Shown here piece by piece: positions 23,552 through 43,849 of a stretch of 45,825 nucleotides of DNA (within the stretch, counting starts at the first letter, position 1; every line of letters starts with the position of its first letter). Source of the stretch: a virus; IMG/VR virus record IMGVR_UViG_3300009502_000083, positions 1 through 45,825 of that record. One strand, written 5' to 3'. The position numbers and the translations under genes are program-made. A model generated the notes under the pieces. That model saw only the letters and a list, made by a program, of their open reading frames with translations. It ran no database searches and had not been told where the DNA came from.

Positions 23552-23591
23552 AATATGCAGATTTATTGGATTGTTTAGGGGATTACACCTA

Positions 23592-23599: not shown

Positions 23600-23617
23600 A
23601 AAAAGACGTTTTTCTTC

Positions 23618-28651: not shown

Positions 28652-28838
28652 ATTTGGAGCATTGTCTCCAAAGTTATCAGAACAGATAAAAGGTCTTCCT
28701 GAAGTTTTTGATAAAGATGCAGATGATATCACCCGTTTGCATCTTAGAGGACTTCTCTCTGACCTCGAAACTAAGAAGGCAAGAAAAAGATTGGTTATTA
28801 CGGCAAACACATGGATGAATAAACTTATAAAAATATGA
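28629..28838 (+). CDS. Hypothetical basic protein
   Basis: 69 residues from ATG 28629. A second ATG at 28641 would cut the overlap with the previous gene from 23 to 11 nt and gives MDIRFGALSPKLSEQI, a plausible natural start. Helical and Lys/Arg-rich toward the C-terminus. Overlaps the DUF1566-type gene by ATGA. Function unknown. Confidence 0.55.
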   Translation: MTKKMDIRFGALSPKLSEQIKGLPEVFDKDADDITRLHLRGLLSDLETKKARKRLVITANTWMNKLIKI

Positions 28839-29335
28839 ACAAAATGACTAACGGAGAATACGAAGAACTTTACACTGATTTTAAAACCCGATTAATAAAA
28901 GATATTTATGTCGGGGGAATAAAATCGAACGGATCAAATCTTTTTCTTCCACTAAGAGAAAGGGGAAAAGTATATAAAGATTTATCCCAAGAAGAATTAC
29001 TATCAAGTATACCTACATCCAAGCTTGAAACTCGTTATGTCATAGACGGGAATCTTCAGGTTGCTTCCGAACATTGTGGAGGAATATGGAGTTGGTTAGG
29101 TGCGAAAGCTTTGTGTGAAAATTTGGGAGAAGGGTGGCGTTTACCAACAAAAGAAGAACTTAATTTGATGTATCTCCATAAGAATGGAATAGGCGGTTTT
29201 GTTGAGGGCTTCTACTGGTCTTCCACTGAGGGCAATGCTGGCAACGCATGGATACAGAACTTTAACAATGGCGACCAGGACTGCAGCAATAAGAGCATCA
29301 CGTTCTACTACGTTCGAGCTGTCAGGAGTATTTAA
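28835..29335 (+). CDS. C-type-lectin-like DUF1566 (Lcl) protein, variable copy 1
   Basis: 166 residues. Residues 75-166 form the DUF1566/Lcl-like domain: AKALCENLGEGWRLPTKEELNLMY, GGFVEGFYWSSTE, AWIQNF and YVRAVRSI. The domain has a C-type-lectin-like fold that displays ligand-binding loops. The last 45 codons match three other genes in the window at invariant codons but differ at scattered exposed ones (see variable repeat 1). The N-terminal 60 residues are unique to this copy. No signal peptide. A role as a receptor-binding or other display protein is inference; the gene lies among accessory genes rather than tail genes. Confidence 0.75.
   Translation: MNKMTNGEYEELYTDFKTRLIKDIYVGGIKSNGSNLFLPLRERGKVYKDLSQEELLSSIPTSKLETRYVIDGNLQVASEHCGGIWSWLGAKALCENLGEGWRLPTKEELNLMYLHKNGIGGFVEGFYWSSTEGNAGNAWIQNFNNGDQDCSNKSITFYYVRAVRSI
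29195..29329 (+). repeat. Variable repeat 1 (DGR-like)
   Basis: 135 nt, equal in length to the repeats at 35898, 36165 and 39921. Invariant codons are identical to the other copies; variable codons are mostly NNC/NNT. Copy 1 has, for example, GGC TTC TAC before WSSTE. Confidence 0.8.
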
Positions 29336-29345
29336 ATAAACTCAA

Positions 29346-29696
29346 TTGGGAGAAACATTGATATATCGACCTCAAAACTGGGTAATCGTGAAAATTATCT
29401 ATAATAATGAAGTCAATTATAAAGTTTTTGGTGGTTGGAGAGAAACTTTTGAAACAGGTGCTTCGTGGAAGATGAACTCAGGTATTGCCAAATTTACTGA
29501 AAGCGTTGAAGGCGGATTCTATCAATTCTTTGGCTTTAGTGGAAACATTTACGAATGTCAAAAATCCGACTATGGAATGTCGTATTATATGGAGGAGATT
29601 TATGAATATCTTGAAAAAGAACTTCGTTATAGTGGAATTACTGCAAAAATGGAAATATTAGACAACACGAATTTTTTAAATTTATTTTCTTTATGA
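29346..29696 (+). CDS. Conserved phage hypothetical protein, non-ATG start
   Basis: 116 residues from TTG 29346; a second in-frame TTG at 29358 is also possible, and no early ATG exists. The pattern WVIVKIIYNNEVNYKVFGGWRE, then SWKMNSGI, then FYQFFGFSGNIYEC matches small phage proteins I have seen but whose role I do not know. Beta-rich. Its stop overlaps the next start by ATGA. Confidence 0.6.
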   Translation: MGETLIYRPQNWVIVKIIYNNEVNYKVFGGWRETFETGASWKMNSGIAKFTESVEGGFYQFFGFSGNIYECQKSDYGMSYYMEEIYEYLEKELRYSGITAKMEILDNTNFLNLFSL

Positions 29697-29884
29697 CTGA
29701 ACATATTATTAAGAATCCTCTTTTAATCGAGAGTTCCGTATTTTTTAGTGAACCTGAATATTCAGATTGGAAATGCATGTGGGGCGGAAATTTAACCTTC
29801 ATTCCTCTAAAGAATAATACGCCAAATTGGTTTCATCGGCTAATGACCACTATACTCTTGGGTGTCAAATGGGAGAAGTCATGA
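29693..29884 (+). CDS. Hypothetical protein
   Basis: 63 residues, Trp-rich (SDWKCMWGG, NWFHRLMTT). Overlaps the previous and next genes by four bases each. Not recognised. Confidence 0.5.
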   Translation: MTEHIIKNPLLIESSVFFSEPEYSDWKCMWGGNLTFIPLKNNTPNWFHRLMTTILLGVKWEKS

Positions 29885-30228
29885 GCATCTCATTAATCCC
29901 AAAAGAAATTCAAATCCAAGAAATTCTAGAAAATTTTGATTTCGAGAAAGTTCATAAAGTAATGGCTTTTTTGAAGTGGAAATGGGCTTGTGGGTATGAT
30001 TTCGAAGGAAAACCTGTTTATGTTACACCAACCGAGAAAGATTTGGTACTTTCTGCTTTAGAAAGACTCAATCGTGTATGGGATGAATATCATTCCATAG
30101 CAACAAAGGAAAATTATGATTGCTTCCTAATTTCAGGTGGATTCAATACTACTATAACGAAATTTGGTACTCTGAAGCTTGAATTTGTTCTCGAAGAATA
30201 TTTCATCGAGGACGAAGAATCATACTAA
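29881..30228 (+). CDS. Hypothetical protein
   Basis: 115 residues from ATG 29881. The frame is open upstream, but this ATG overlaps the preceding stop (ATGA) and gives a natural start, MSISLIPKEIQIQEILENFDFEKVHKVM. KWKWACGYDFEGKPVYVTPTEKDLVLSALERLNRVWDE suggests a compact alpha/beta domain. No family recognised. Confidence 0.6.
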   Translation: MSISLIPKEIQIQEILENFDFEKVHKVMAFLKWKWACGYDFEGKPVYVTPTEKDLVLSALERLNRVWDEYHSIATKENYDCFLISGGFNTTITKFGTLKLEFVLEEYFIEDEESY

Positions 30229-30255
30229 AATATAACCAAGAAAAATTAAATAATT

Positions 30256-30684
30256 ATGAACATTGAAAAAGAAAAATTTCTATTCGAAAAGTATCCACAG
30301 CTTTTTAGAGACAAAGATTCCCCAATGACTCATACAGCAATGTGTTGGGGAATAGAAGTAGGAGATGGATGGTACGATATTTTGGATGAACTCTGTGAAA
30401 GAATCCAAACACATTGCGACAATAACGGATATGATGAGGTTAGGTTTTCGCAGATCAAGGAAAAATACGGTACTCTTAGGGTGTATGTAAATTTTGGAAG
30501 TGATGAAATTTATGATTATATTGATGAAGCTCAAGAGAGATCCTCTCATGTCTGTGAACTATGTGGTTCTAAGAGAGGAAAACTGTATGATGACTTCGGT
30601 TGGCTGAGTGTTCGATGCAAAAAATGCAAAACCAAACAAGATGCTTATACCGCTGAAAGATTGTCAAAGCTAACAGAGAAATGA
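30256..30684 (+). CDS. Conserved phage protein with zinc ribbon
   Basis: 142 residues. MCWGIEVGDGWYDILDELCERIQ (29-51) followed by QIKEKYGTLRVYV (72-84) and a zinc ribbon CELCGSKRGKL...VRCKKC (101-104 and 118-122 region) is a recurrent phage protein ('GFE.GDGW..L', 'Q.KEKFG.LR.Y', zinc ribbon). The function is unknown to me. Its 3' end overlaps the convergent cassette copy 2 by 40 nt. Confidence 0.65.
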   Translation: MNIEKEKFLFEKYPQLFRDKDSPMTHTAMCWGIEVGDGWYDILDELCERIQTHCDNNGYDEVRFSQIKEKYGTLRVYVNFGSDEIYDYIDEAQERSSHVCELCGSKRGKLYDDFGWLSVRCKKCKTKQDAYTAERLSKLTEK

Positions 30685-31637
30685 ATGTTTAGAAAATCTA
30701 ATATATCTTTTTCCTGAGATATATGTAATGTTTCAGTGTGACCACCACCAAACATTATCTCAGGCTTGTGGTAGGTAAACTTAGTTTTTATCTCTTCTTC
30801 TATATCAACTACCGTTTTAGAATCACCTATCCATTGATATAATGTTTCGTATTCGTATGGCATAGTGTTATTTCTTGAATATCTTTTTTCTATTGTCCTT
30901 GAGGTTATTCCTATTTTAAGAAAGGTTTCTATATCATTAGTACATTTTAAAAGATAAATAGTAGCAATATTGTATTTATTCTCAAATTTTATTCCTTCTC
31001 TAATTCTTGCATTATCCTTTACACATTTTGGACAATTATGTCCTCTTAAATGGTGATTTGGTGATTGTTTAAATTCGCCATGAATTGGACAAACAATAAT
31101 AACTTTATCACGAGAGTGTGTGTAGACAACTTTGGAATAGTCATACTTTCCTTCTCCATGAATTTTAATAGATTTTTGAATAAAGTCTTTATTTGAATAA
31201 GTTTTTCTTTTTCTTTCTTCAATGTTGCTACATTTTGGGCAACCTCGTCCTTGTAAATGGGCATTTGGTGTCAATTGAAACTCACCATGTATAGGACAAA
31301 TTATTATAACTTTAGTATTGGTGTGTATATAAGCAACCAAAGAATAATCATATTTATCTCTATGAATAAGGGTGGATTTTTCTTTAAAAGTATTTATGTT
31401 TGAAAGATTTCCACATTTTGGGCAACCATGATTACGTAAATGGTGATTTGGTGATTGTTTAAATTCCCCGTGAAGATTACAAATAATTATTAATTTACTC
31501 CCACAATTTTTATATTCAACTTTAGAATAATTATACCGATCACCATGAACTAAGATAGCTTTCTTTATGAATTCTTCTGTTGTAGATTTTTTATTGGAAC
31601 GTAGAGGCTTATAAATAGAGGTGTAGGTGTCTAACAT
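30645..31637 (-). CDS. Cassette copy 2: tandem zinc-ribbon repeats plus GIY-YIG-like nuclease
   Basis: 330 residues. Three zinc-ribbon repeats (about residues 17-205), each ending CPKC, and a C-terminal GIY-YIG-like domain starting ATIYLLKCTNDIETFLKIGITSRTIEKRY. The last 60 residues (KPEIMFGGGHTETLHISQEK) are almost the same as copy 1, whereas the repeats differ more. Start MLDTYTSIYKP is shared with copy 1. It lies behind an exact TATAAATA with an 85-nt leader carrying the 31-nt hairpin. Its tail overlaps an unrelated plus-strand gene, as expected of an inserted cassette. Confidence 0.75.
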   Translation of the reverse strand: MLDTYTSIYKPLRSNKKSTTEEFIKKAILVHGDRYNYSKVEYKNCGSKLIIICNLHGEFKQSPNHHLRNHGCPKCGNLSNINTFKEKSTLIHRDKYDYSLVAYIHTNTKVIIICPIHGEFQLTPNAHLQGRGCPKCSNIEERKRKTYSNKDFIQKSIKIHGEGKYDYSKVVYTHSRDKVIIVCPIHGEFKQSPNHHLRGHNCPKCVKDNARIREGIKFENKYNIATIYLLKCTNDIETFLKIGITSRTIEKRYSRNNTMPYEYETLYQWIGDSKTVVDIEEEIKTKFTYHKPEIMFGGGHTETLHISQEKDILDFLNIHFSVSFDNLSAV

Positions 31638-31675
31638 TTTAGTTTAGTTTAAATTATTTTGATGCATTAGATACA

Positions 31676-31706
31676 GCCTTCGGATGCTGATAACATGGCG
31701 GAAGGC
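31676..31706. other. Cassette hairpin 2
   Basis: GCCTTC / GAAGGC outer stem with the same 6-1-4-7-4-3-6 plan as hairpin 1. Only the loop differs from copy 1. The plus-strand side is followed by a pyrimidine-rich ATTCTTTTCTTTCTT. Confidence 0.7.
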
Positions 31707-31722
31707 ATTCTTTTCTTTCTTA

Positions 31723-31730
31723 TATTTATA
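31723..31730 (-). promoter_or_regulatory. T4-type late promoter for cassette copy 2
   Basis: Exact minus-strand TATAAATA within TATAAATATAAG, 86 nt upstream of the ATG at 31637. Confidence 0.7.
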
Positions 31731-31747
31731 AAACTTTAATTTTCCAC

Positions 31748-31775
31748 TTGTATATTCCAAATTTTATCGTATATT
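31748..31775 (+). promoter_or_regulatory. Putative promoter downstream of cassette 2
   Basis: TTG at 31748-31750, 19 nt, TATATT at 31770-31775, closely similar to the promoters beside copies 1 and 4. Drives the gene at 31814. Confidence 0.65.
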
Positions 31776-31813
31776 GATATATCAACAACTTAAATAAATG
31801 ATAATGGAGAGAA

Positions 31814-32050
31814 ATGAAATTATATTACGTGGAGTCATTGGCTAAAGATTTTGCATCAGAAGGAAACATGAAATTCTTTGTTTCGGCAGAGAATTCAATG
31901 TTCTATGTGCATACCTTAGAGGAAGCGATGATGTTCAAGACAAAGGAAGAAGCAGAAAAATATATTGATTCCTATAATGAAGAAGTAGTTCAAGAATTTG
32001 AAGTTTTCGGGAAGAATTTTATCGATAAATACAAAAATAATATTAAATGA
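31814..32050 (+). CDS. Small paralogous protein A (MKLYY family)
   Basis: 78 residues. Starts MKLYYVESLAKDF, then a strand MFYVHTLEEAMMFKTKEEAEKYI and ends FEVFGKNFIDKYKNNIK. It is a clear paralogue of the protein at 34598, sharing start, LEEA...FK...EAEK and the end. Overlaps the next gene by ATGA. Function unknown. Confidence 0.6.
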   Translation: MKLYYVESLAKDFASEGNMKFFVSAENSMFYVHTLEEAMMFKTKEEAEKYIDSYNEEVVQEFEVFGKNFIDKYKNNIK

Positions 32051-32265
32051 AAAACTATATTGAGATCACAACGAAAGATTTTGTGTTAGTCACGCTACCA
32101 ATTGAAAATATTATTGTTGCGATGGTTGCTATTGAAAAAAAAAATCGGAAGGATGACAGAGAATTTTTTGTGGAACTTGCCTATTCGACGTCAGAAATAA
32201 TTTATTTTCCTTTTGAATCATATAGTGAAATTTTAGATAAAATTAAAAAGGCGGAGACTGAATAA
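32047..32265 (+). CDS. Hypothetical protein
   Basis: 72 residues, beta-rich N-terminal half (YIEITTKDFVLVTLPIENIIVAMVAIE) followed by a second strand-helix unit. Overlaps the genes on both sides. Not recognised. Confidence 0.55.
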   Translation: MKNYIEITTKDFVLVTLPIENIIVAMVAIEKKNRKDDREFFVELAYSTSEIIYFPFESYSEILDKIKKAETE

Positions 32266-32588
32266 TGGAAAATATAGAAATTATCAACGAAAACATTTAC
32301 GACCATAATGAAGATATGGAATGTTTTAAACTAATATTACTTGAAGATCTGTCTTTCCTCCTTAATAAGGAAGAACATGTTTTCCGTCTATCATATAAAG
32401 ACTTAAAAAAACTTAAAAAAGAAGTCGATAAACATTTCAAGAAGGTAGAAATCAAAAAAGTTCCGTATACGATCACACCGACGGAAGAAGCAGTTATAAT
32501 GTTAGCAGAAGCAATGAAAAAAACGGTAGATGAAGAAATCATTCGAAGCATTATAACCAGTGCTAAAAATATTAGCACAACGATATAA
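32265..32588 (+). CDS. Hypothetical protein
   Basis: 107 residues, acidic N-terminus then a Lys-rich helical middle (KDLKKLKKEVDKHFKKVEIKK) and an Ala/Glu helix (TEEAVIMLAEAMKK). No motif. The ATG shares a base with the previous stop. Last gene before a promoter. Confidence 0.55.
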   Translation: MENIEIINENIYDHNEDMECFKLILLEDLSFLLNKEEHVFRLSYKDLKKLKKEVDKHFKKVEIKKVPYTITPTEEAVIMLAEAMKKTVDEEIIRSIITSAKNISTTI

Positions 32589-32596
32589 AATAGTTC

Positions 32597-32625
32597 TTGC
32601 TTTCTAATATTTTTATTCGTATATT
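32597..32625 (+). promoter_or_regulatory. Putative promoter
   Basis: TTG at 32597-32599, 20 nt, TATATT at 32620-32625. Leader of about 35 nt to the ATG at 32668. Confidence 0.65.
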
Positions 32626-32667
32626 AGACTATAAGAATTAATAATTGAACCCAAAACAGGATTTGTT

Positions 32668-33033
32668 ATGGCCGTATTTGCTTTAATGGAAACACCTTGG
32701 AATTTAAATAAAATGATTACAATCTTTGAAATTTTAAATGGACTATCTCAGACTTCTGCTGTGATATTGCATGATGACTATAAGTGGATTCAACAAGAAT
32801 GTCATGAATACGCAAAGCAATCGGAAATTGCTTTCAGCAGAGCCACAATGAGCGAGTATAGATTTGAAGAGACAGGATCGAAATTATGTATATTAAAACC
32901 CTCTTATGAGGGGTTATGTGGAAGGACGTTCGACTTTTATTTTGTAACTTTAAGGGTATTAGAAGAATATAGTGATATTATCCGCCCGTGTATTCGGTCA
33001 AGTGAAAATAAAAGAATAATTTTAATCAAATAA
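32668..33033 (+). CDS. Hypothetical protein
   Basis: 121 residues. MAVFALMETPWNLNKMITIFEILNGLSQTSAVILHDDYKWIQQECHEYAK looks alpha-helical; the C-terminal half has beta character (FDFYFVTLRVLEEY). No family recognised. Followed by a 78-nt gap that holds a weak 6-bp hairpin (AAGAAC / GTTCTT) and nothing else I can name. Confidence 0.55.
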   Translation: MAVFALMETPWNLNKMITIFEILNGLSQTSAVILHDDYKWIQQECHEYAKQSEIAFSRATMSEYRFEETGSKLCILKPSYEGLCGRTFDFYFVTLRVLEEYSDIIRPCIRSSENKRIILIK

Positions 33034-33111
33034 CCAAGAACGAAAGAAAAGTTCTTAAAATCAAAGAGGATTTGATTACCATCTACTTTACACCTACTAA
33101 ATTGAAAACAA

Positions 33112-33495
33112 ATGAAAGATAAACTCGAAAAGGAATATTTGAAACCATGTCTTATATTTTATATAGAATATAATTCAGAATATGGCAAAGTATACAGTAT
33201 GGATGATATAGAAAAACCATCAGAAGAACTATACTCTTATTATGAAGGTGACTGTATGACTTTAGGAAGAGGGATTCATGACTATGAAAGATGGTGTGAT
33301 ATTTATATGAAAAGTGAGTTGGAGAGGAAGAAAAGATGTGCCTCCTGCCGTTTAAGTGTTGAGAAATTTGCCATAAGATCCTTTGCGGATATTGAAAGTT
33401 TCTATGAGGAAGAAAAATTAAACATTATTAAATTTATAGATCCTCTTCTTAATAAATATTTTAAAATTAAAATTGAAAATGAGAATAATATTTGA
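33112..33495 (+). CDS. Hypothetical protein
   Basis: 127 residues with CASCRLSVEKFAIRSF (about 81-96), a CxxC pair that could bind metal only with partners elsewhere. Acidic overall, Tyr-rich. Overlaps the next gene by 17 nt. Not recognised. Confidence 0.5.
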   Translation: MKDKLEKEYLKPCLIFYIEYNSEYGKVYSMDDIEKPSEELYSYYEGDCMTLGRGIHDYERWCDIYMKSELERKKRCASCRLSVEKFAIRSFADIESFYEEEKLNIIKFIDPLLNKYFKIKIENENNI

Positions 33496-33739
33496 AGACA
33501 AGGATTTCGGGAGAAATGCTTCAGTTGAATGTCCAGATAATGTTCATACGGAACTGTATATCGCGATGGATAAAAGAATCAGGGAACTGGAAGCTCAGGT
33601 ACAAGAGCTAATCGAAGAGCTGCAAGATGTCGTATGTTTTGCTCCAGAATGCACAACATCAAAGGAGTACGCAGTAAAACGGCTGGAAGAATTGATGAGC
33701 CAGTATGTCTTTTTAGATAATAAATGTGAGGCCAAATGA
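33479..33739 (+). CDS. Coiled-coil protein sharing a duplicated tail
   Basis: 86 residues from ATG 33479. A TTG two codons earlier is less likely. A short N-terminal domain is followed by a coiled coil (RELEAQVQELIEELQDVV) and the segment CFAPECTTSKEYAVKRLEEL...YVFLDNK. The last 49 residues are repeated nearly exactly inside the next protein. Base composition here is richer in G and C than in the neighbours, which suggests acquisition from another source. Confidence 0.5.
   Translation: MRIIFEDKDFGRNASVECPDNVHTELYIAMDKRIRELEAQVQELIEELQDVVCFAPECTTSKEYAVKRLEELMSQYVFLDNKCEAK
33590..33736 (+). repeat. Direct repeat, first copy (second at 34338-34496)
   Basis: 147 nt that recur at 34338-34496 with only a few substitutions and a 12-nt insertion (one extra LIEE unit) in the second copy. 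The repeat spans coding sequence in frame in both genes. A shorter similar pair (KMIGEFERVIE) occurs at 34028 and 34498. Confidence 0.85.
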
Positions 33740-33794
33740 GCATGACAGATATGGCTGTTGCAAGAGGGGGTTTTTAATTAAAACGGAGAATACT

Positions 33795-34601
33795 ATGGAT
33801 AATCGTATTGTTGTAAGTATACCGGAACACCTTATACCGAGTGATGAATTGCATGAGGTTCAAGGGGAAGATCGGTATAAAGATTTGCTTGAAAATAAAG
33901 ATTTACGGAAAATATCTTCGGGTGATTTTACGGGAGTTGGTGATACAGTAAAAGAGATGTTTTCCGTTATATCAAATGATCGTGTTCCTGAAGCCAGCAA
34001 AACGATAGATCATATTGTTGATGCTAACAAAATGATCGGAGAGTTTGAGAGAGTGATCGAAAAACATTCCAGATGGTTAGCAAATACTCCTCCACATGTT
34101 AAGGCTCATATCACTGAGTTAAAGGAAGCCCACAACTCCGACATATCTGCCGCGGTAAAAATGAAGGGGATTGCTTGTGATAAGCATGATTTAGTGCATG
34201 GATGGGCCTGCCCTCTATGTGCAAACGCCAAGGACGAGCGCATATCGTGGCTTGAGGAATACGCAAACGCAAAAGACGTATCCGTAACAGAGGAAATGCA
34301 ACGAGCGAACGATGCAGAAGCAAGAACCACGGAGCTTGAAGCTCAGGTACAAGAGCTAATCGAAGAACTAATCGAAGAGCTGCAAGATGTCGTATGCTTT
34401 GCACCAGAATGCACAACATCAAAGGAGTACGCAGTAAAACGGCTGGAAGAATTGATGAGCCAGTATGTCTTTTTAGATAATAAATGGGAGGCCAAAAAAA
34501 TGATCGGGGAGTTTGAGAGGGTGATTGAAATTATGGATGAGATAGTTAACCAGAGACAGAAGAAAATCCAACTTGATTTTAAAAGAGCGAGGGTTTCATG
34601 A
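33795..34601 (+). CDS. Coiled-coil protein with duplicated segment
   Basis: 268 residues from ATG 33795, chosen because GGAGAA lies 6 nt upstream and the 23 codons before it look non-coding. The first 60 residues are polar. The middle has CDKHDLVHGWACPLC (a possible metal site), then a coiled coil and the segment duplicated from the previous gene. KMIGEFERVIE occurs twice in the protein. Codon use (CTG, CGG, GCG) differs from the AT-rich neighbours. Function unknown; looks recently acquired and internally duplicated. Confidence 0.55.
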   Translation: MDNRIVVSIPEHLIPSDELHEVQGEDRYKDLLENKDLRKISSGDFTGVGDTVKEMFSVISNDRVPEASKTIDHIVDANKMIGEFERVIEKHSRWLANTPPHVKAHITELKEAHNSDISAAVKMKGIACDKHDLVHGWACPLCANAKDERISWLEEYANAKDVSVTEEMQRANDAEARTTELEAQVQELIEELIEELQDVVCFAPECTTSKEYAVKRLEELMSQYVFLDNKWEAKKMIGEFERVIEIMDEIVNQRQKKIQLDFKRARVS

Positions 34602-34828
34602 AACTATACTATATTACTGAGATAGGTTTTGATTCTGAATATAAACGTCCTCGATACCTTACAACCGAAAAATGTACAGAGATGTGGACAACAGACTTAG
34701 AAGAAGCTATAATATTCAAAAAGAAAAATGAAGCAGAGAAAATGCTAACTTCGCTCTTTCAAGAAGTTCGTTCATTTGAAGTTTTCGGATATATCGATAA
34801 ATATAAAAATAATATTTACAAAGAATGA
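34598..34828 (+). CDS. Small paralogous protein B (MKLYY family)
   Basis: 76 residues, MKLYYITEIGFDSEY... ending FEVFGYIDKYKNNIYKE; paralogue of the protein at 31814. Overlaps the previous gene (ATGA) and the next. The two copies lie either side of the foreign-looking segment at 33479-34601. Function unknown. Confidence 0.6.
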   Translation: MKLYYITEIGFDSEYKRPRYLTTEKCTEMWTTDLEEAIIFKKKNEAEKMLTSLFQEVRSFEVFGYIDKYKNNIYKE

Positions 34829-34965
34829 GAATATTCTTAGGAATATTAGGAATTATTGTTATATTAGGATTGTATTATTGGATCGATATTAGATTACCAT
34901 TGGATAATAACCATTGGATAATAAAAACAACTTGGCTGGAAATTAAACAAATAAAAATAAAATGA
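34825..34965 (+). CDS. Small single-pass membrane protein
   Basis: 46 residues from ATG 34825, overlapping the previous TGA. One N-terminal transmembrane helix (RIFLGILGIIVILGLYYWI) followed by a short soluble tail ending KQIKIK. The tight ATGA junctions at both ends support translation. Function unknown. Confidence 0.5.
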   Translation: MRIFLGILGIIVILGLYYWIDIRLPLDNNHWIIKTTWLEIKQIKIK

Positions 34966-35236
34966 AAACCAAAGTAATTGATTACAAAAAATCGTAGATG
35001 TAAACACCTTTCAACCGAAGGTGAGAGTTACTCTTGAATGGTTATTGGAAGATCTTCAAGATGCTAAAATTGGAAGAACAGGAGAGGAACAGTGTTCTAT
35101 TATAGGAAAAAGTATATCTGATGCAATAGAAGCATTTGAACCTGTCCCTAAAGTTTATGGCAAAGGTGAATGGGTAGCAGAAACCCTTGAAGACGCCAAA
35201 CAGATGGCGAAAAATTTTCCAGGAGACGTATCATGA
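34962..35236 (+). pseudogene. Probable frameshifted gene (one base missing in an A run)
   Basis: ATG 34962 overlaps the previous stop, but its frame ends at TAG 34995 after 11 codons. A second frame is open from 34982 to TGA at 35236 and reads QKIVDVNTFQPKVRVTLEWL..., whose only start is GTG 35021 in mid-sentence. Adding one A to the A6 run at 34986-34991 joins them into a 91-residue protein MKTKVIDYKKIVDVNTF.... If the base is truly missing, either the gene is broken or slippage rescues it; a sequencing error is equally possible. The product has no recognised family. Confidence 0.5.
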
Positions 35237-35529
35237 TTAATACCTATTTCTATATAAACAATCCGTTCTCCAAACAGGGTTACGAGAATATTTTTTCAAC
35301 GGGTGGAAAATTATTCAAAAATAAATATTGGGAGATAAATATCGAAAGATCTTCCAGTATTTTTGGTCTGATGCTAAGAATCCCATTAAAGCAGAATTGT
35401 CACGCGGGAATCTTTTTTTCTATAGTGCTATTCGGCCATGGACTGGATTTTGAATTTTACGATGTTAGGCACTTGGACAGAGATGCGTGGTTTGTCTGTC
35501 CAGAGCAGGAAGAGGAGGTTCTTAAATGA
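35233..35529 (+). CDS. Conserved phage hypothetical protein
   Basis: 98 residues. The pattern NNPFSKQGYENIFSTGGKLFKNKYWEI, then CHAGIFFSIVLFGHGLDFEFYDVRHLD, recurs in many phages ('NPFS....F.N', 'KYWE.Q', 'DHAG', 'LFG....F..YD.RHWD'). Function unknown. Overlaps the previous frame by ATGA and the following mini-gene by ATGA. Confidence 0.65.
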   Translation: MINTYFYINNPFSKQGYENIFSTGGKLFKNKYWEINIERSSSIFGLMLRIPLKQNCHAGIFFSIVLFGHGLDFEFYDVRHLDRDAWFVCPEQEEEVLK

Positions 35530-35627
35530 CTATCGATATATATGCTTTAGGAACAGTAATAGGATTGTATCTCGCTGGTATAATATCTGGAATATATATT
35601 ATGAATTGGATGAACGAGAATTGTTAA
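35526..35627 (+). CDS. Mini membrane protein
   Basis: 33 residues from ATG 35526, overlapping the previous TGA: MTIDIYALGTVIGLYLAG followed by IISGIYIMNWMNENC. Mostly one transmembrane helix. Very short, but the coupling to the upstream gene and its position before a promoter support it. Confidence 0.4.
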   Translation: MTIDIYALGTVIGLYLAGIISGIYIMNWMNENC

Positions 35628-35635
35628 AATTTTCC

Positions 35636-35663
35636 TTGCATTATTGAAAACATTTCGTATATT
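35636..35663 (+). promoter_or_regulatory. Putative promoter
   Basis: TTG at 35636-35638, 19 nt, TATATT at 35658-35663. Drives the DUF1566-type genes at 35694 and 36066. Confidence 0.65.
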
Positions 35664-35693
35664 AGAATAACCTAAAACGAAATAACCATCATC

Positions 35694-36038
35694 ATGATTA
35701 CAGAAACCATTATGGATAGAGATCTAAAATCGAAAGAGTTTGGAAATCTGAGTTTCTCCACTATTGCCACTAAAGACCTTGAGGGTGTATTTACATGGGA
35801 TGAAGCAGTGGAGGAAGTAAAGAAACTTGGAGAAGGCTGGAGATTACCAACAAAAGAAGAAATTAATTTGATGTATCGTCATAAGGATGAAATCGGTGGT
35901 TTTGTTGAGAACCTCTACTGGTCTTCCACTGAGTACGAGGCTAACTTCGCATGGATACAGAACTTTAACTATGGCGACCAGTACTACGACTCCAAGGATT
36001 GCACGTACTACTATGTTCGAGCTGTCAGGAGCATTTAA
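35694..36038 (+). CDS. C-type-lectin-like DUF1566 (Lcl) protein, variable copy 2
   Basis: 114 residues. Nearly the whole protein is the domain: TKDLEGVFTWDEAVEEVKKLGEGWRLPTKEE, INLMYRHKDEIGGFVENLYWSSTE, AWIQNF and YVRAVRSI. A second ATG at 35712 follows AGAAACCATT and may be the real start. The 3' 45 codons form variable repeat 2. It carries its own promoter, unlike copy 1. No signal peptide or membrane segment. Confidence 0.75.
   Translation: MITETIMDRDLKSKEFGNLSFSTIATKDLEGVFTWDEAVEEVKKLGEGWRLPTKEEINLMYRHKDEIGGFVENLYWSSTEYEANFAWIQNFNYGDQYYDSKDCTYYYVRAVRSI
35898..36032 (+). repeat. Variable repeat 2 (DGR-like)
   Basis: 135 nt. It is the most diverged copy: nearly all the third-base or non-adenine differences among the four repeats are specific to it. 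It may be older or derived from a different template. Confidence 0.78.
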
Positions 36039-36065
36039 TCTAATTAAACTGAAACAGAAATCATT

Positions 36066-36488
36066 ATGGAAATTGAAAAATCAATAGAGATCGAACATAT
36101 TCAGGTTGCCATGAAAGACCTTGAGGGTGTATTTATGATGTATCTTCATAAGGATAAAATCGGGGGTTTTGTTGAGAACAACTACTGGTCTTCCACTGAG
36201 AGCAATGCTACCAACGCATGGTTTCAGCTCTTTACCAGTGGCAACCAGTACTACAACTTTAAGAACCTCACGAACCTCTACGTTCGAGCTGTCAGGAGTA
36301 TTAAACCTAAAACAGAAGCCATTATGGAAAACACGAAAATAGAAAAAGCAAAAAATCAACTACAGGAAATGATTGATCTTCTCAAATCCAGATCTGATAT
36401 CAAACTACCTGAAGGACATCACGACAAACTTCTAAAGATAGAAGCCGATTTGAATAATTTAATCTCTGATAATAATAAAAATCAATAA
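36066..36488 (+). CDS. Deleted and fused DUF1566 (Lcl) gene, variable copy 3
   Basis: 140 residues. VAMKDLEGVF is followed at once by MMYLHKDKIGGFVENN. The segment of about 24 residues carrying TWDEA...GWRLPTKEELN, present in the other copies, is missing in frame. After YVRAVRSI the usual stop is lost (ATT AAA instead of ATT TAA), fusing the domain to KPKTEAIMENTKIEKAKNQLQ.... The fused part, from Met at 36324, looks like a former separate coiled-coil gene of 54 residues. The variable region itself is intact. It may be a decaying or repurposed copy. Confidence 0.6.
   Translation: MEIEKSIEIEHIQVAMKDLEGVFMMYLHKDKIGGFVENNYWSSTESNATNAWFQLFTSGNQYYNFKNLTNLYVRAVRSIKPKTEAIMENTKIEKAKNQLQEMIDLLKSRSDIKLPEGHHDKLLKIEADLNNLISDNNKNQ
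36165..36299 (+). repeat. Variable repeat 3 (DGR-like)
   Basis: 135 nt; the copy richest in AAC codons at variable sites (AAC AAC TAC before WSSTE), so perhaps closest to the unseen template. Confidence 0.8.
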
Positions 36489-36492
36489 TGCT

Positions 36493-36912
36493 ATGAAATC
36501 TGAAACGGAACCACAATTCACTCCAATCACTGGTAATATTTGCGAAGGCTTGGTGAATCAACAGTTAATAGAGATCAAGTCTCTAAAAGAGAGGATGGAC
36601 GAGAGGATGGAAAATAAGGAAAGTTTAATAGACAGTCTAAGAACCATTAGTGAAGATCGAGGCAAAGAGATTACAAGATTAGCAAAGCAAGTGAACAAAT
36701 TGACAAGAGATTTGGAATATGCTAATAGTTCTACTACAACAGAGAGAATTTCTCTTGGTGTGGATGACATTAAGGTATTTTCTACCACAGAATATTTTAA
36801 TGGCTCTATGAGTGTTAATCTTGATGTAAGTGCAGTCGGAAAGCTTCACCTATTGGAAATTGGTTTCAACTCTCTACTACTCGATTCTATTAAGAAGGTT
36901 GAAAATGATTGA
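36493..36912 (+). CDS. Hypothetical coiled-coil protein
   Basis: 139 residues. A long coiled coil (about 22-78: QQLIEIKSLKERMDERMENK ... RLAKQVNKLTRDLEYA) is followed by a beta-type C-terminal domain (VDDIKVFSTTEYFNGSMSVNLDVSAVGKLHLLEI). Overlaps the next gene by 8 nt. Not recognised. Confidence 0.55.
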   Translation: MKSETEPQFTPITGNICEGLVNQQLIEIKSLKERMDERMENKESLIDSLRTISEDRGKEITRLAKQVNKLTRDLEYANSSTTTERISLGVDDIKVFSTTEYFNGSMSVNLDVSAVGKLHLLEIGFNSLLLDSIKKVEND

Positions 36913-37108
36913 GAAAGATGTAAAATGTTTTCCTGTCCTTACGAGGGTTTATTGTAAGGAATGTGGTAAGGAAATGATTAAAGATACTTCACCTGCTCCA
37001 TCGTATTTTAGAAATCCAACAAAATACAAATACGATTGTGTCAAGTGTGGAAGGTCTGTGGAAAGCTACAAAAACTATCCAATCATTGAATACAAAGAAA
37101 TAGAATAA
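36905..37108 (+). CDS. Zinc-ribbon protein
   Basis: 67 residues from ATG 36905. The frame is open further upstream but only inside the previous gene. CKECGKEM (17-24) and CVKCGRSV form a two-knuckle zinc ribbon with a 24-residue spacer. Probably a small nucleic-acid- or protein-binding factor. It lies 21 nt before the RNA ligase gene. Confidence 0.6.
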   Translation: MIEKDVKCFPVLTRVYCKECGKEMIKDTSPAPSYFRNPTKYKYDCVKCGRSVESYKNYPIIEYKEIE

Positions 37109-37129
37109 TAATTACAAAATCACGACATT

Positions 37130-38479
37130 ATGCTTATAACATCGAAGGACATTAATAGAAATTATGCAGGCCAAGTAGTACAATTACATAACATCCAACC
37201 GCATCCCAATGCAGATAGACTGAGGATTGTAAATATAAATTTTCAATCGGTTATCATTGGTCAAGGTTTAGCCGAAGGCGATATTTGTGTCTATTTTCCT
37301 GTAGAGTCTCAAATCAATTCCGACTTTCTCAAAATTACTAATTCCTTCAGAGATGAAAAACTGAATGAGGACTTGACTACTAAAGGATACTTTGAAAGCA
37401 GTGGTCGAGTTCGTGCAGTAAAACTTCGTGGAGAGGCGAGTTGTGGGTGTCTGTTTCCTATAGAAGAATTGGAGAAATTCGTGGGGGAATCATTCAACAA
37501 AACAAATTTAATAGGTTTTGAGTTTGACTACTATGATGACATTCTGATTTGTGAGAAGTATGTTGTTCCTGTAAAGCAAGGAGGTCTTGGTGGAAATGGA
37601 AAGACAGGAAAGACTTCTAAACTGTCTAAGATTGTAGAGAATCAGTTTAAATTTTTGGAAGACACAGAAAATTTCAGAAAGAACCAATTTAAAATTCAAC
37701 CAGAGGACGAAATTACAATCTCTACAAAGGTTCATGGCACGAGTTCTATTACTTCACATCTTCTTGTAAAAAGAGAACTTAATTTTCTTGAGAGGGTGAT
37801 TATCAAATTGAGAATTAATTTTGGGAAAACTCCTGCTATATGGAAGCATCTTCCCGAAATTAGGCAAGATGAATATGGGATAATTTGTTCTTCGAGAAAA
37901 GTCATAAAGAGTGTCCAAGAAGATAAAATAGAAGGAAATTCGTTTTATGAGGATGATATCTGGAGTATATGTGGAAATGAATTGAAAGAATTTATTCCTA
38001 AAGGAATCAGTATTTTTTACGAAATAGTTGGGTACTTACCTTCTGGTGGTGCTATCCAATCGAAGTATGATTATGGTTGTAAGCAAAGTGAACACAAGAT
38101 TTACGTATACAAAATTACCTATACAAACTCGGACGGAAAGGTATTTGTAATTGGTTCTAAAGAATCTGAAGAGTTCTGTAAGAAAATAGGATTTGACTTC
38201 GTGCCGATTCATTTTCATGGAACCGCAAAGGATTATTTCCCTTATAATTCGACTGAACAATCTTTGGATGAATGGCAGAAGTCGTTTGTGAGATTTTTAG
38301 AAGAACGATTCTTAGAAGGTGATTGTCCTATTTGTAAAAATAAAGTTCCGTTTGAAGGTATTTGCATCAGGAAGGAATCCCTAAATAATTACGAAGTTTA
38401 TAAATTGAAATCATTTAATTTTCTTTTGAGAGAATCTTCGGAGCTTAATTTAGGTATTCCTGATATTGAGGAATCGTGA
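37130..38479 (+). CDS. RNA ligase, Rnl5 (Deinococcus DRB0094) type
   Basis: 449 residues. N-terminal OB-like domain: QLHNIQPHPNADRLRIVNI and IGQGLAEGDICVYFPVESQI (18-62), resembling tRNA-binding OB folds. The nucleotidyltransferase domain has the adenylated Lys200 in ISTKVHGTSSI (197-207), then YEIVGYLP (motif IIIa region), EGICIRKE (motif IV) and YKLKSFNF (motif V). Near the end CPICKNKVPFEG adds a CxxC. The order OB domain then KxHGTS is that of the Deinococcus Rnl5 family, which seals 3'-OH to 5'-phosphate nicks in RNA. Likely repairs RNA cleaved by host defence. Its stop abuts the convergent cassette copy 3. Confidence 0.78.
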   Translation: MLITSKDINRNYAGQVVQLHNIQPHPNADRLRIVNINFQSVIIGQGLAEGDICVYFPVESQINSDFLKITNSFRDEKLNEDLTTKGYFESSGRVRAVKLRGEASCGCLFPIEELEKFVGESFNKTNLIGFEFDYYDDILICEKYVVPVKQGGLGGNGKTGKTSKLSKIVENQFKFLEDTENFRKNQFKIQPEDEITISTKVHGTSSITSHLLVKRELNFLERVIIKLRINFGKTPAIWKHLPEIRQDEYGIICSSRKVIKSVQEDKIEGNSFYEDDIWSICGNELKEFIPKGISIFYEIVGYLPSGGAIQSKYDYGCKQSEHKIYVYKITYTNSDGKVFVIGSKESEEFCKKIGFDFVPIHFHGTAKDYFPYNSTEQSLDEWQKSFVRFLEERFLEGDCPICKNKVPFEGICIRKESLNNYEVYKLKSFNFLLRESSELNLGIPDIEES

Positions 38480-39243
38480 TTATGATTTTAGGTATTTCAG
38501 AATGTTTATATTTTCATGAATATCAAGACATTCTGAAATGCCGCCAAAATATTGAAATGGTCTATAAGATTTAAATAATTTTATTATATCTGATTCAATT
38601 GCTTCTGCTATTTCACCAAGAAAGTTCCCTTCATATAATATATTATATTTATATGGCATTGCCTTCTTTCCTGAATATCTTTCCTTCACGGAACGAGCTG
38701 TAACTCCAATCTTTAAAAATGATTCTTCTTTATCAAAACATTCTATTAGATATAAAATACAATCTTCTTTTCCATAAATATCTTTCCAAGTATTAGCACG
38801 TAACTTTCTAATCTTATCGTATCCACATTTAGGACAACCTTGCCCATGTAAATGGTTATTCGGATTCTGTTCAAACTCTCCATGTATAGGACAAATTATT
38901 ACTACTTTTGATTTGGAATGTTTGTAATCAACTTTAGAATAATCGTATTTCTTTTCTCCATGAACCAAGATTGATCTCTGAACGAATTGTTCTGTTGATG
39001 ACCTATATGAATCAGCTTTGCATTTTAGACAACCATCGCCTGATAAATGAGAATTTGGTCTTTGTTCAAACTCTCCATGTATAGGACAAATGATTACTAC
39101 TTTATTATGGGCATTAATATAATCAACTTTAGAATAATCGTATTTCTCTCCATGAATAAAAATAGCTTTTTTAATGAATTCTTCTGTTGTGGATTTTTAG
39201 TGGAACGTAGAGGCTTATAAATAGAGGTACAGGTGTCTAACAT
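38480..39243 (-). pseudogene. Cassette copy 3: nuclease gene broken by a 1-nt deletion
   Basis: The minus-strand frame begins ATG at 39243 (MLDTCTSIYKPLRSTK) as in the other copies. The homologous run of six T (plus strand) is only five at 39194-39198, so the frame is lost after about 16 codons. From there to 38480 the correct frame is open, encoding two zinc-ribbon repeats and a GIY-YIG-like end (ILYLIECFDKEESFLKIGVTARSVKERY). A shorter product could start internally (TTG 38968), but it would keep only half the binding arm. One repeat (38971-39023) is almost identical to copy 1 (13470-13522), indicating recent exchange. Confidence 0.75.
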
Positions 39244-39280
39244 AATAGTGTTGTTTAATTGTTATGGGTGATTAGATACA

Positions 39281-39311
39281 GCCATCAGATATTTGCAGTA
39301 TCGTGGATGGC
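39281..39311. other. Cassette hairpin 3 (compensatory variant)
   Basis: Outer stem GCCATC / GATGGC: position 4 is changed on both sides relative to copies 1 and 2, keeping the pair. The inner stem is a perfect 4 bp (GATA / TATC) with a 7-nt loop. Same 31-nt plan. Confidence 0.75.
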
Positions 39312-39319
39312 ATTTCTTA

Positions 39320-39327
39320 TATTTATA
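39320..39327 (-). promoter_or_regulatory. T4-type late promoter for cassette copy 3
   Basis: Exact TATAAATA on the minus strand within TATAAATATAAG, 77 nt before the broken gene's ATG. Confidence 0.65.
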
Positions 39328-39338
39328 AAACTTTAAAT

Positions 39339-39366
39339 TTGCATATTGAAAAAGATTTTGTATATT
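39339..39366 (+). promoter_or_regulatory. Putative promoter downstream of cassette 3
   Basis: TTG at 39339-39341, 19 nt, TATATT at 39361-39366; divergent from the late promoter as in other cassettes. Leader of about 40 nt to the ATG at 39412. Confidence 0.65.
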
Positions 39367-39411
39367 GAATGGAGATGTAAACATTGAAGAAAGTTGATTC
39401 TGTGTATAGAA

Positions 39412-39588
39412 ATGAATAAAATCCAGAAAATTTCTTATCAATTAGGTTTCAATGACGCTCGTTCATGGAAACCAAAGAATTATTATAATTTTTTTGGAAA
39501 AGTGGATTCTTCTTCGTATGATAAAGGATATGAGATTGGATTGAAGCAAAGAGGAATTTTAAATAAAACTAAACAAAACAAATCATGA
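39412..39588 (+). CDS. Small hypothetical protein
   Basis: 58 residues from ATG 39412, preferred over an upstream non-ATG start. MNKIQKISYQLGFNDARSWKP and SYDKGYEIGLKQRG show two 'Y..G......' half-repeats, resembling short phage proteins of unknown role. Overlaps the next gene by ATGA. Confidence 0.55.
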   Translation: MNKIQKISYQLGFNDARSWKPKNYYNFFGKVDSSSYDKGYEIGLKQRGILNKTKQNKS

Positions 39589-40061
39589 TAACCAACGAAG
39601 AGCAGAAAATAGAAGAACTTGAATGGTTCATAAAGGAATTCAAGGAACAGAAAGAAGAAATCCGATCATTAAAAAGAGTCTTGAACAGCATTAAAAACGT
39701 GATTAACATTAGTCTTCTTGAACCTGTAAAGCCTACAAAACCATCCAAGATTGAAAATGGTTATAATATAGATGGAAAACTGATTGTTTCCATGAAAGAC
39801 CTTGAGGGGGCATTTACATGGGATGAAGCAATGGAGGAAGTAAAGAAACTTGGAGAAGGCTGGAGATTACCAACCAAAGAAGAACTTAATTTGATGTATC
39901 TTCATAAGGATAAAATCGGGGGTTTTGTTGAGCACATCTTCTGGTCTTCCACTGAGGGCAATGCTGACTGCACATGGGTACAGGACTTTAGCAATGGCTA
40001 CCAGTACTACTACAGTAAGGACGACACGGACACCTACGTTCGAGCTGTCAGGAGTATTTAA
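39585..40061 (+). CDS. C-type-lectin-like DUF1566 (Lcl) protein, variable copy 4
   Basis: 158 residues. An N-terminal coiled coil (6-43, KIEELEWFIKEFKEQKEEIRS...) is joined by a Pro/Lys linker to the domain VSMKDLEGAFTWDEAMEEVKKLGEGWRLPTKEELNLMYLHKDKIGGFVEH, FWSSTE, WVQDF and YVRAVRSI. The coiled coil would oligomerise the display domain. The last 45 codons are variable repeat 4. Each of the four copies therefore has a different N-terminal module. Confidence 0.75.
   Translation: MITNEEQKIEELEWFIKEFKEQKEEIRSLKRVLNSIKNVINISLLEPVKPTKPSKIENGYNIDGKLIVSMKDLEGAFTWDEAMEEVKKLGEGWRLPTKEELNLMYLHKDKIGGFVEHIFWSSTEGNADCTWVQDFSNGYQYYYSKDDTDTYVRAVRSI
39921..40055 (+). repeat. Variable repeat 4 (DGR-like)
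   Basis: 135 nt; CAC ATC TTC before WSSTE, and GAC/TAC codons at many variable sites. Invariant codons are identical to copies 1 and 3. Confidence 0.8.
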
Positions 40062-40089
40062 TCATTGAATCATTTATAAACTTAATTCC

Positions 40090-40236
40090 GTGAATATAAC
40101 TAACAAATTTAAAGCATTATCCATTGGCAAAAAAATAGTTTGGATACCATCATTAAAAAGAGTATCATTCTGTAGTTCAATGGAACAAGCTAAAAAGAAA
40201 TTTAGTGGACATCCTATAGAAGTATATGGAATATAG
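40090..40236 (+). CDS. Possible small basic protein, GTG start
   Basis: 48 residues if GTG 40090 is used: VNITNKFKALSIGKKIVWIP followed by SLKRVSFCSSMEQAKKKFSG and HPIEVYGI. It fills most of the 233-nt gap between genes, and its composition (IGKKIVWIPSLKRV, EQAKKKF) looks protein-like. No ATG start and no Shine-Dalgarno sequence; it may instead be a decayed gene. Confidence 0.35.
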   Translation: MNITNKFKALSIGKKIVWIPSLKRVSFCSSMEQAKKKFSGHPIEVYGI

Positions 40237-42745: not shown

Positions 42746-43849
42746 TTAAAATTTAAATATTTTGTTAAGACTTTCTGTTAATTTACCATCAGAGTATTCA
42801 GTCTTTAAAATCTTTTCAGTGAGTATAATAAATTCCATTCCATTTTTCTTGGCGTATTCTTTCGCATATTCAAATTTTTGCATATTTTTTACATAATCAA
42901 CACTTTCTAATAAATACTGTTTACTTCGTTTTGAGGGTGGGGATAATTTTCGGTGTGGTTTAATTTCACAAATATATTTATTACCATTTATACTTTCGAT
43001 AAATAGATCAGGGAAATATCTATGCCAAGCCCCATCATAAGATATATATTTTATTATAATTTCCTCTGACGACCATTTTTTAATGAGTTCGCTTCGGTCT
43101 AACCATAAAAACATTCTCAATTCCCATGAGGAACGATATATGCACGAATTAATATTTCCAGTATATTTACTTTCATTTTTAATTTTATAGACCCCTTGAT
43201 TATATCTATTATTCATGTTTAACATGTTTATTATTGAACAGATTGGACAACCTTTATTTCTTAAATGTTCGGATGGTTCTTGTTGAAATTCTCCATGTAT
43301 AGGGCAAATAATTATTACTTTAGTTTGGGACTGTTTATAATAAACTTTAGAGTAATCATATTTTCCTTCTCCATGAATGAGGATAGCTTTCTTTATAAAT
43401 TCTTCTGTTGATGACCTTTGACCATCATCTTTACATTTTTGACAACCATAGCCTTTTAAATGATTATTTGGAATTTGTAAAAATTCTCCATGAACAGGAC
43501 AGATGATTATTACTTTTGTTTTATTGTTTTTGTAATCAACTAAAGAATAATCGTATCGATCTCCATGAATAAGTATAGCTTTCTGAATGAATTCTTCTGT
43601 TGATGACCTTTGTTCATAAACTTTACATTTTGGGCAACCTTTTCCAGATAAATGACTTGAAGGAGATTGTTCAAATTCTCCATGAATTAAACAGATTATG
43701 ATTACTTTTGATTGGGAATGTTTGTAATCAACTAAAGAGTAATCATACTTATCACCATGAATGAGGATGGCTTTTTTAATAAATTGTTCTGTGGTGGATT
43801 TTTTAGTGGAACGAGGCTTATAAATAGAAGTAGATTGGCTGTGTAACAT
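42746..43849 (-). CDS. Cassette copy 4: zinc-ribbon repeats plus PD-(D/E)XK nuclease (gp4-like)
   Basis: 367 residues. Three zinc-ribbon repeats (18-205) as in the other cassettes, but the GIY-YIG end is replaced by an unrelated nuclease. That domain shows YRSSWELRMFLWLD (239-251), WSSEEIIIKYIS (259-270), HRYFPDLFIE (276-285) and YICEIKP (292-298), giving Glu243, Asp281 and Glu295-x-Lys297 as the PD-(D/E)XK site. The pattern closely follows T4 gp4-type head-completion nucleases and TnsA-like enzymes. Same leader, late promoter and start region as the other copies. A homing-type role is inferred. Confidence 0.75.
   Translation of the reverse strand: MLHSQSTSIYKPRSTKKSTTEQFIKKAILIHGDKYDYSLVDYKHSQSKVIIICLIHGEFEQSPSSHLSGKGCPKCKVYEQRSSTEEFIQKAILIHGDRYDYSLVDYKNNKTKVIIICPVHGEFLQIPNNHLKGYGCQKCKDDGQRSSTEEFIKKAILIHGEGKYDYSKVYYKQSQTKVIIICPIHGEFQQEPSEHLRNKGCPICSIINMLNMNNRYNQGVYKIKNESKYTGNINSCIYRSSWELRMFLWLDRSELIKKWSSEEIIIKYISYDGAWHRYFPDLFIESINGNKYICEIKPHRKLSPPSKRSKQYLLESVDYVKNMQKFEYAKEYAKKNGMEFIILTEKILKTEYSDGKLTESLNKIFKF

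What the first reader, a model, noticed from the sequence alone, without database searches (positions are those of the whole stretch)
29195..40055. Four 135-nt variable repeats with the signature of a diversity-generating retroelement
The 3' ends of four lectin-like DUF1566 (Lcl) genes (29195-29329, 35898-36032, 36165-36299, 39921-40055) align over 45 codons without a gap. By hand count, 24 codons keep the same amino acid and 22 of these are identical at every base in all four copies; 21 codons vary. The changes sit mainly at first and second positions of NNC/NNT codons, and third bases differ in only four variable codons. Of 40 variable nucleotide columns, 34 have an A in at least one copy, consistent with an AAC/AAT-rich template mutated at adenines. 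Just upstream (GWRLPTKEE region) the copies do differ synonymously, so the block has a sharp 5' edge. DUF1566/CLec-fold proteins are established DGR targets. Caveats: adenines in ACT, GAG, CAG, AAG and ACG are invariant, which requires selection; neither a reverse transcriptase nor a template repeat is in the window.
Basis: partly seen in the sequence, partly recalled or inferred. Interest (0 to 1): 0.9.

Follow-up and report, generated by a model that had tools for sequence, protein, structure and literature searches.

The report
Phage lectin genes rewritten by retroelement
Four small lectin-like genes in a fragment of a T4-like phage share a 135-base block that looks as if a mutation-making reverse-transcription system has repeatedly rewritten it, although the machinery itself was not found in the fragment.

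Summary
The four repeats behave like variable repeats (VRs) of a diversity-generating retroelement (DGR). Between VRs only 8 of 170 same-residue codons differ silently, as in true Lcl_C/DUF1566 DGR repeats (30 of 349); in Lcl_C paralogues of huge phages without a detected reverse transcriptase (RT) it is 414 of 1703. The blocks have GC3 0.64-0.67 against 0.29 in 22 other window genes. VR1, VR3 and VR4 differ at 32 columns: 31 show an A, one is a third position.

One of its arguments is weak: A in most variable columns also holds for the RT-less paralogues.

No RT or template is in the window, a 45.8-kb fragment of a T4-like phage. Verdict: DGR target genes, machinery probably off-contig; new member of a known kind. 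Contigs of 306-372 kb hold similar repeats without a detected RT.

The parts
28835..29335 (+). target gene 1, Lcl_C protein of 166 aa
   Evidence: PF07603 42.2 bits, cut-off 34.9
29195..29329 (+). variable repeat VR1
35694..36038 (+). target gene 2, Lcl_C protein of 114 aa
   Evidence: PF07603 45.1 bits
35898..36032 (+). variable repeat VR2; alone responsible for five of the six columns without an A, all third positions
36066..36488 (+). target gene 3, shortened Lcl_C protein of 140 aa; lacks about 26 residues ahead of the VR and runs on behind it
   Evidence: PF07603 25.2 bits, below the cut-off of 34.9
36165..36299 (+). variable repeat VR3, internal to its reading frame
   Evidence: GC3 falls again behind it
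39585..40061 (+). target gene 4, Lcl_C protein of 158 aa with an N-terminal helix
   Evidence: PF07603 43.1 bits; model of mean pLDDT 89.3; best PDB match Legionella Lcl C-terminal domain
39921..40055 (+). variable repeat VR4
29312..29328 (+). shared 17-nt 3' end of VR1, candidate homing signal (inferred)
   Evidence: identical in all four copies
36015..36031 (+). shared 17-nt 3' end of VR2
36282..36298 (+). shared 17-nt 3' end of VR3
40038..40054 (+). shared 17-nt 3' end of VR4

Best explanation
The four genes are targets of one diversity-generating retroelement. A DGR reverse transcriptase copies a non-coding template repeat with errors at adenines, and the cDNA replaces the matching block (VR) of each gene. 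AAC/AAT codons of the template become NNC/NNT codons in the VR; the rest is copied faithfully. The proteins are small C-type-lectin-like (Lcl_C) domains; copies with damaged core codons are lost, so core adenines look invariant. The RT and template most likely lie in the missing part of this phage genome. Shown here: repeat anatomy, near-absence of silent change in the block, a compositional step at its edge, the fold, and agreement with genuine Lcl_C DGRs. Inferred: the RT and template, current activity, loss by selection, and a ligand-binding role.
For: Window VRs differ silently in 8 of 170 same-residue codons and in the third base in 10 of 100 changed codons; true Lcl_C VRs of one lineage 30 of 349 and 13 of 176, template against VR 3 of 430 and 11 of 200; paralogues without a detected RT 414 of 1703 and 555 of 1390. 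Window against true VRs p = 0.15 and 0.50, against the paralogues p = 4e-11 and 2e-10 (comparisons are not independent). VR1, VR3 and VR4: 31 of 32 variable columns with A. GC3 0.64-0.67 against 0.29, with the rise at the VR edge in all four genes. Spared core adenines as in 18 genuine pairs. Residue differences nearly equal for all six VR pairs, 14-18 of 45. Fold: 8q4e at Foldseek E 2.1e-8, then C-type lectins. DUF1566 is a known DGR target (passages of PMC4159848, PMC6642488 and PMC8143477).
Against: No RT by PF00078, by a profile of six DGR RTs or by tblastn, and no template in the window. Genes 2 and 4 show no lower silent change in the VR than upstream (4 of 28 against 2 of 23), and VR2 carries five third-position differences of its own. 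The GC3 step over 0.2 is seen in only 4 of 8 testable RT-bearing loci and also in 20 of 38 copies whose locus holds no RT. A content, base spectrum and the A-rich composite do not discriminate. Among 330 quartets of all huge-phage copies the share of third-position columns goes down to 0.135, just below the window's 0.143. None of 39 T4-like kin records, most of them fragments, has an RT or Lcl_C; nor did the C48C1 record have an RT.
Confidence: 0.7

Rival explanations
1. The VRs were written by a DGR that this phage does not carry: either the RT and template act in trans from the host or another element, or the DGR was lost and the VRs are fossils.
For: No RT or template in the window. Contigs of 306-372 kb hold Lcl_C genes with a similar compositional step and no RT in two searches. 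RT-less VR fragments in nanoarchaea are read as fossils or as remotely diversified (PMC4372165, passages). VR2's private third-position changes suggest age.
Against: The window is perhaps 30% of such a genome (45.8 of about 156 kb, inference from C48C1), so the absence says little. Silent change between VR1, VR3 and VR4 is nil (0 of 82 same-residue comparisons), which speaks against old fossils.
Confidence: 0.2
2. Ordinary duplicated Lcl_C genes diverged under diversifying selection, with gene conversion, and no retroelement was ever involved.
For: Lcl_C paralogue families without a detected RT exist in huge phages. A content and base spectrum of variable columns are similar there. Some pairs of such paralogues also show little silent change (L123-L131, L101-L131, L131-L134).
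Against: Selection on residues does not hold third bases and synonymous sites still while 14-18 of 45 residues change, and does not explain C-ending codons (67 C to 13 T at the variable codons) in a genome with 890 to 2790. Gene conversion would remove residue differences, not add them (inference).
Confidence: 0.07

Closest known systems
Lcl_C/DUF1566-targeting DGRs of phages and bacteria (here L124, L125, L156, L106, L112; Bacuni phages of Bacteroides, PMC8143477, passages)
   Same: Target domain, the YWSSTE...AW.Q.F..G.Q....K......VRAVR layout, Asn-codon variation, sparing of core adenines, silent-site statistics.
   Different: There the template and RT lie beside the target; here neither is in 45.8 kb. 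The window has four VRs spread over 11 kb in short stand-alone proteins; the 23 Lcl_C loci listed had one or two VR-like copies each besides any template.
Bordetella phage BPP-1 DGR (mtd/TR/brt)
   Same: Principle: block at the end of a C-type-lectin-type gene, mismatches opposite template adenines.
   Different: Another target family; single target with TR and RT adjacent.
Partial, RT-less DGR fragments of nanoarchaea (PMC4372165, passages)
   Same: Target gene with VR and no RT beside it.
   Different: Archaeal targets without relatives; the same genomes do hold complete DGRs elsewhere.
Legionella Lcl C-terminal domain (8Q4E, PMC11162425, passages)
   Same: Best structural and sequence match of the target; its conserved residues are described as mostly in the core.
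   Different: Part of a trimeric adhesin with a collagen-like stalk; 'diversity-generating' does not occur in that paper's main text.

Membership tests
Diversity-generating retroelement | DGR-type reverse transcriptase | tested here: inconclusive
   Not in the 45.8-kb window by three searches; the rest of the genome is not held
Diversity-generating retroelement | non-coding template repeat with A at the variable positions | tested here: inconclusive
   Not in the window; two exact patterns in viral contigs gave one chance match and none; own or near records may be left out of such scans
Diversity-generating retroelement | VR in the C-terminal part of a C-type-lectin-like target | tested here: met
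   Three genes end with the VR; in gene 3 the frame runs on. Lcl_C in 3 of 4 over the cut-off; fold
Diversity-generating retroelement | variation at template adenines only | tested here: inconclusive
   34 of 40 columns with an A for all four, 31 of 32 without VR2, but the template is unknown and A content alone is not diagnostic
Diversity-generating retroelement | faithful copying elsewhere (near-absence of silent change) | tested here: met
   8 of 170 against 30 of 349 in true VRs and 414 of 1703 in paralogues without detected RT; 0 of 82 among VR1, VR3, VR4
Diversity-generating retroelement | accessory protein (Avd or similar) | not tested
   Pfam and PHROGs scans covered a part of the window's reading frames and no search was aimed at Avd
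Diversity-generating retroelement | retrohoming activity or population polymorphism in the VRs | not testable with these tools
   No reads or culture
Lcl_C (PF07603, formerly DUF1566) | score over the curated cut-off | tested here: met
   42.2, 45.1 and 43.1 bits against 34.9 for genes 1, 2 and 4; gene 3 at 25.2 does not reach it
T4-like phage (carrier) | T4-type core replication and late genes | tested here: met
   Family B polymerase, UvsW, clamp, clamp loader and late sigma factor, tail tube

The most novel reading that the evidence does not exclude
T4-like and huge phages carry Lcl_C variable repeats but no reverse transcriptase of their own, and these are rewritten in trans by a DGR of the host or of a co-resident element: diversity targets decoupled from their mutator. 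Support: a GC3 step in Lcl_C genes of 306-372-kb contigs without a detected RT, no template-like copy among the motif hits read, and VRs of different contigs (L123 and L131) that differ silently or in the third base in 2 of 36 codons while their upstream codons do so in 10 of 20. That pair was picked from many, the contigs may be incomplete, and on average these paralogues are old.
Probability: 0.13. Interest if true: 0.78.

Novelty: new member of a known kind. Interest (0 to 1): 0.52.

Why it matters
It places DGR-type target genes, four of them, in a T4-like phage of which no near relative was available; the 39 kin records searched had neither Lcl_C nor RT, though most are fragments. It shows how VRs can be recognised without a template, by comparing silent change and GC3 inside the block with the flanks. 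It also shows that in Lcl_C DGRs the adenines of core codons are spared in the sequences observed, which answers a natural objection. If the repeats in huge phages truly lack an RT, in-trans diversification becomes directly testable.

Tried and rejected
Template search by exact patterns in viral contigs: one search gave one locus (L001), a chance match in a portal-like frame; one search gave none. The search for related loci with single proteins chose poor peptides (19 and 44 stretches, none confirmed); alignment A2 gave one distant Lcl_C locus, L002, without RT. megablast of window 28800-40100 against phages: no match. Dulem virus 29, the only Lcl_C hit among phages at E 1e-5, has no RT in its record.

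Examined and dropped as discriminators, because paralogues without a detected RT do as well: A in most variable columns, the base spectrum (window against true DGRs p = 0.95 and 0.92; G002 against true DGRs 0.73 and 0.12), and the likeness of an A-rich composite to a real template (78 of 90; G002 composites mean 74, maximum 80). RNA-parameter folds behind the four VRs show no hairpin common to all (by eye).

Limits of my controls. (75 pairs in 68 of 87 loci) kept only pairs with at least 75% of mismatches opposite A (or T on the other strand), and some frames look wrong (L016, L031-L033; L076 is probably not a DGR repeat); I use them only for the rough statement that non-Asn adenines change in about half of cases in general DGRs; 18 pairs from 17 of the 23 loci listed; dropped were L141 (same as L124), L164, L170, L171 (no gap-free pair under 60 mismatches), L159 and L117 (single copy). 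Four further loci with RT (L098, L128, L151, L165) were never put in. One of the 17, L114, has no RT in its locus or record. The L106 row was cut short by my end rule. L106, L112, L116, L145, L149 and L152 are treated as one lineage, so counts are not independent. One search kept only copies passing my motif filter: 3 of the window's 4, 8 RT loci, 38 copies without RT in the locus. In one search the counts for DGR loci include the template copy. The p-values treat copies and pairs as independent and are overstated. Two of the five structure models were poor (mean pLDDT 64-65).

Papers: passages read in PMC4159848, PMC6642488, PMC7981956, PMC8143477, PMC8144416, PMC4372165, PMC7824862, PMC10743442 and PMC11162425; all others were seen in listings only. 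Searches listed no paper on DGR-like Lcl_C repeats in T4-like or huge phages by title; one search was useless because its term was read as 'lclc'.

Full report
What is there. Four genes on the + strand (28835-29335, 35694-36038, 36066-36488, 39585-40061) share a 135-nt block at 29195-29329, 35898-36032, 36165-36299 and 39921-40055. Genes 1, 2 and 4 pass Pfam's cut-off for Lcl_C (PF07603, formerly DUF1566); gene 3 lacks about 26 residues ahead of its block, runs on behind it, and scores below the cut-off. The best model of gene 4 (mean pLDDT 89.3, pTM 0.64; two of five models near 64-65) matches the C-terminal domain of Legionella Lcl first (8q4e, Foldseek E 2.1e-8), then C-type lectins.

Where it lies. 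The record is a 45,825-base virus contig classed as linear, often a fragment. It carries T4-type core genes: family B polymerase, UvsW, clamp, clamp loader, late sigma factor, tail tube. The top-listed polymerase in the phage collection is that of Phage C48C1 (156 kb, Kyanoviridae) at 36%; the 80 best IMG/VR polymerases listed are 34-37% identical. Of those, 39 records were searched: none had an RT or Lcl_C, but most are under 50 kb.

Is it a DGR target? Without a template I compared three sets. (i) Window VRs, six pairs: 8 of 170 same-residue codons differ silently, 10 of 100 changed codons differ in the third base. (ii) Lcl_C repeats in loci with a DGR RT: VR against VR within one lineage 30 of 349 and 13 of 176; template against VR 3 of 430 and 11 of 200. 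(iii) Equal-length Lcl_C paralogues in huge-phage contigs without a detected RT: 414 of 1703 and 555 of 1390. The window agrees with (ii) (p = 0.15 and 0.50) and not with (iii) (4e-11 and 2e-10, pairs not independent). In quartets the share of conserved codons with silent change is 0.06 in the window, 0.04-0.26 in true VRs, 0.25-0.43 in paralogues of one genome (G002) and 0.11-0.73 in 330 quartets from all the huge phages. The share of variable columns at third positions is 0.14 in the window, 0.08-0.27, 0.26-0.34 and 0.135-0.456 in the same sets, so one extreme of the last set reaches the window's value.

Edge of the block. For genes 1, 2 and 4 together, silent change is 6 of 86 in the VR and 14 of 65 in the 26 codons before it (p = 0.014). 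Genes 1-4 carry the signal (0 of 27 against 7 of 22, p = 0.002), genes 1-2 point the same way (p = 0.096), genes 2-4 show none (4 of 28 against 2 of 23), although they differ in 17 of 45 residues inside and 3 of 26 upstream (p = 0.027). Residue differences between VRs are nearly constant (14-18 of 45), as expected of independent draws from one template.

Composition. The VRs have GC3 0.64-0.67; 22 other genes have 0.29 and the upstream parts of the same four genes 0.27-0.39. The 22 variable codons end in C rather than T 67 to 13, against 890 to 2790 in those genes. GC3 rises around the VR edge in all four genes and falls again behind the VR of gene 3. The step exceeds 0.2 in 3 of 3 testable window copies, 4 of 8 copies in RT loci and 20 of 38 copies whose locus has no RT; most of the latter are huge-phage copies with tails rich in Asn, Gly, Ser and Tyr, while tails without that pattern (for example in L102, L137, L103, L148) show little or none (this grouping is mine, made afterwards).

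The invariant adenines. Pattern scans brought in 84 loci, 26 with a DGR RT by tblastn. In 18 template/VR pairs adenines of Asn codons changed in 240 of 472 cases, but in Q 0 of 32, E 0 of 18, S 0 of 28, Y 2 of 31, T 3 of 39, D 3 of 17, K 10 of 50. In general DGRs such adenines change in about half of cases (rough). Genuine Lcl_C DGRs thus show the same sparing. I infer selection, because in Lcl the conserved residues are described as mostly in the core (PMC11162425, passages).

What does not discriminate. A in variable first- and second-position columns (window 0.97; G002 0.82-1.0), the base spectrum, and the A-rich composite. More telling: without VR2, 31 of 32 variable columns hold an A and one is a third position; 35 triples of G002 have 9-25 columns without A of 38-59, and 20 triples of true VRs from different contigs 3-13 of 23-33. 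VR2 alone accounts for five of the six A-less columns, all third positions, so it is probably older or from another version of the template (inference).

What is missing. No RT by PF00078, by a profile of six DGR RTs, which did find the RT in the two records of that call known to hold one, or by tblastn; no template in the window. The fragment is perhaps 30% of such a genome, so this is weak evidence against. A 368-kb contig (G038, L048) has both a polymerase related to the window's and a DGR repeat pair beside an RT.

A wider lead. Contigs of 306-372 kb (G002-G004) hold Lcl_C genes, 19 motif places in G002, and no RT in two searches. The motif hits that I read (30 of 40 places fetched as loci, others seen in earlier loci) lay in Lcl_C frames apart from two chance matches; none looked like a template. 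Their silent divergence is high on average, so they look older than the window VRs, but a few pairs are not. RT-less VR fragments are reported from nanoarchaea and read as fossils or remotely diversified (PMC4372165, passages). Completeness of the contigs is unknown, so rewriting in trans stays the bold reading.

Verdict. The repeats were written by a DGR-type process (about 0.9 by my judgement); that the RT and template are on the missing part of this genome as well, 0.70. New member of a known kind, in an unusual carrier and with several small stand-alone targets.

Noticed in passing
window 22283-23623, - strand: An Nramp-type metal transporter gene in a phage fragment (PF01566, E 9e-63).
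   Followed up: no
window 18146-21487, + strand: A block of sugar- and TPP-related genes: glycosyltransferase family 34, NAD-dependent epimerase, FkbM methyltransferase and a split transketolase (N-terminal and pyrimidine-binding parts as two genes).
   Followed up: partly
window 12966-13931, 30645-31637, 38480-38968, 42746-43849, - strand: Four related genes with repeated DUF4379-type zinc-finger modules (the third below the cut-off); one joined to a T5orf172 domain, one to a TnsA-like endonuclease domain: likely homing-type nucleases.
   Followed up: partly
window 33473-34601: A segment of about 47 residues is present in two neighbouring reading frames (33473-33739 and 33726-34601), a recent duplication seen in the translations.
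   Followed up: no
L094, L101, L110, L131, L142 (G002, 327 kb); L122 (G003, 306 kb); L144 (G004, 372 kb): Huge-phage contigs with Lcl_C genes, up to 19 motif places in one contig, VR-like GC3 steps in many copies, and no RT by two searches.
   Followed up: partly
L114 9992-10760: A template-like and a VR-like Lcl_C copy side by side (24 of 41 template adenines changed, 0 of 64 other bases) with no RT found in the 38.9-kb record.
   Followed up: partly
L124, L106, L156 and other Lcl_C DGR loci: In Lcl_C DGRs the adenines of Q, E, S, T and Y codons inside the rewritten block are almost never changed, unlike in the general DGR set; selection or a sequence-context effect on the RT could both explain it.
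   Followed up: partly
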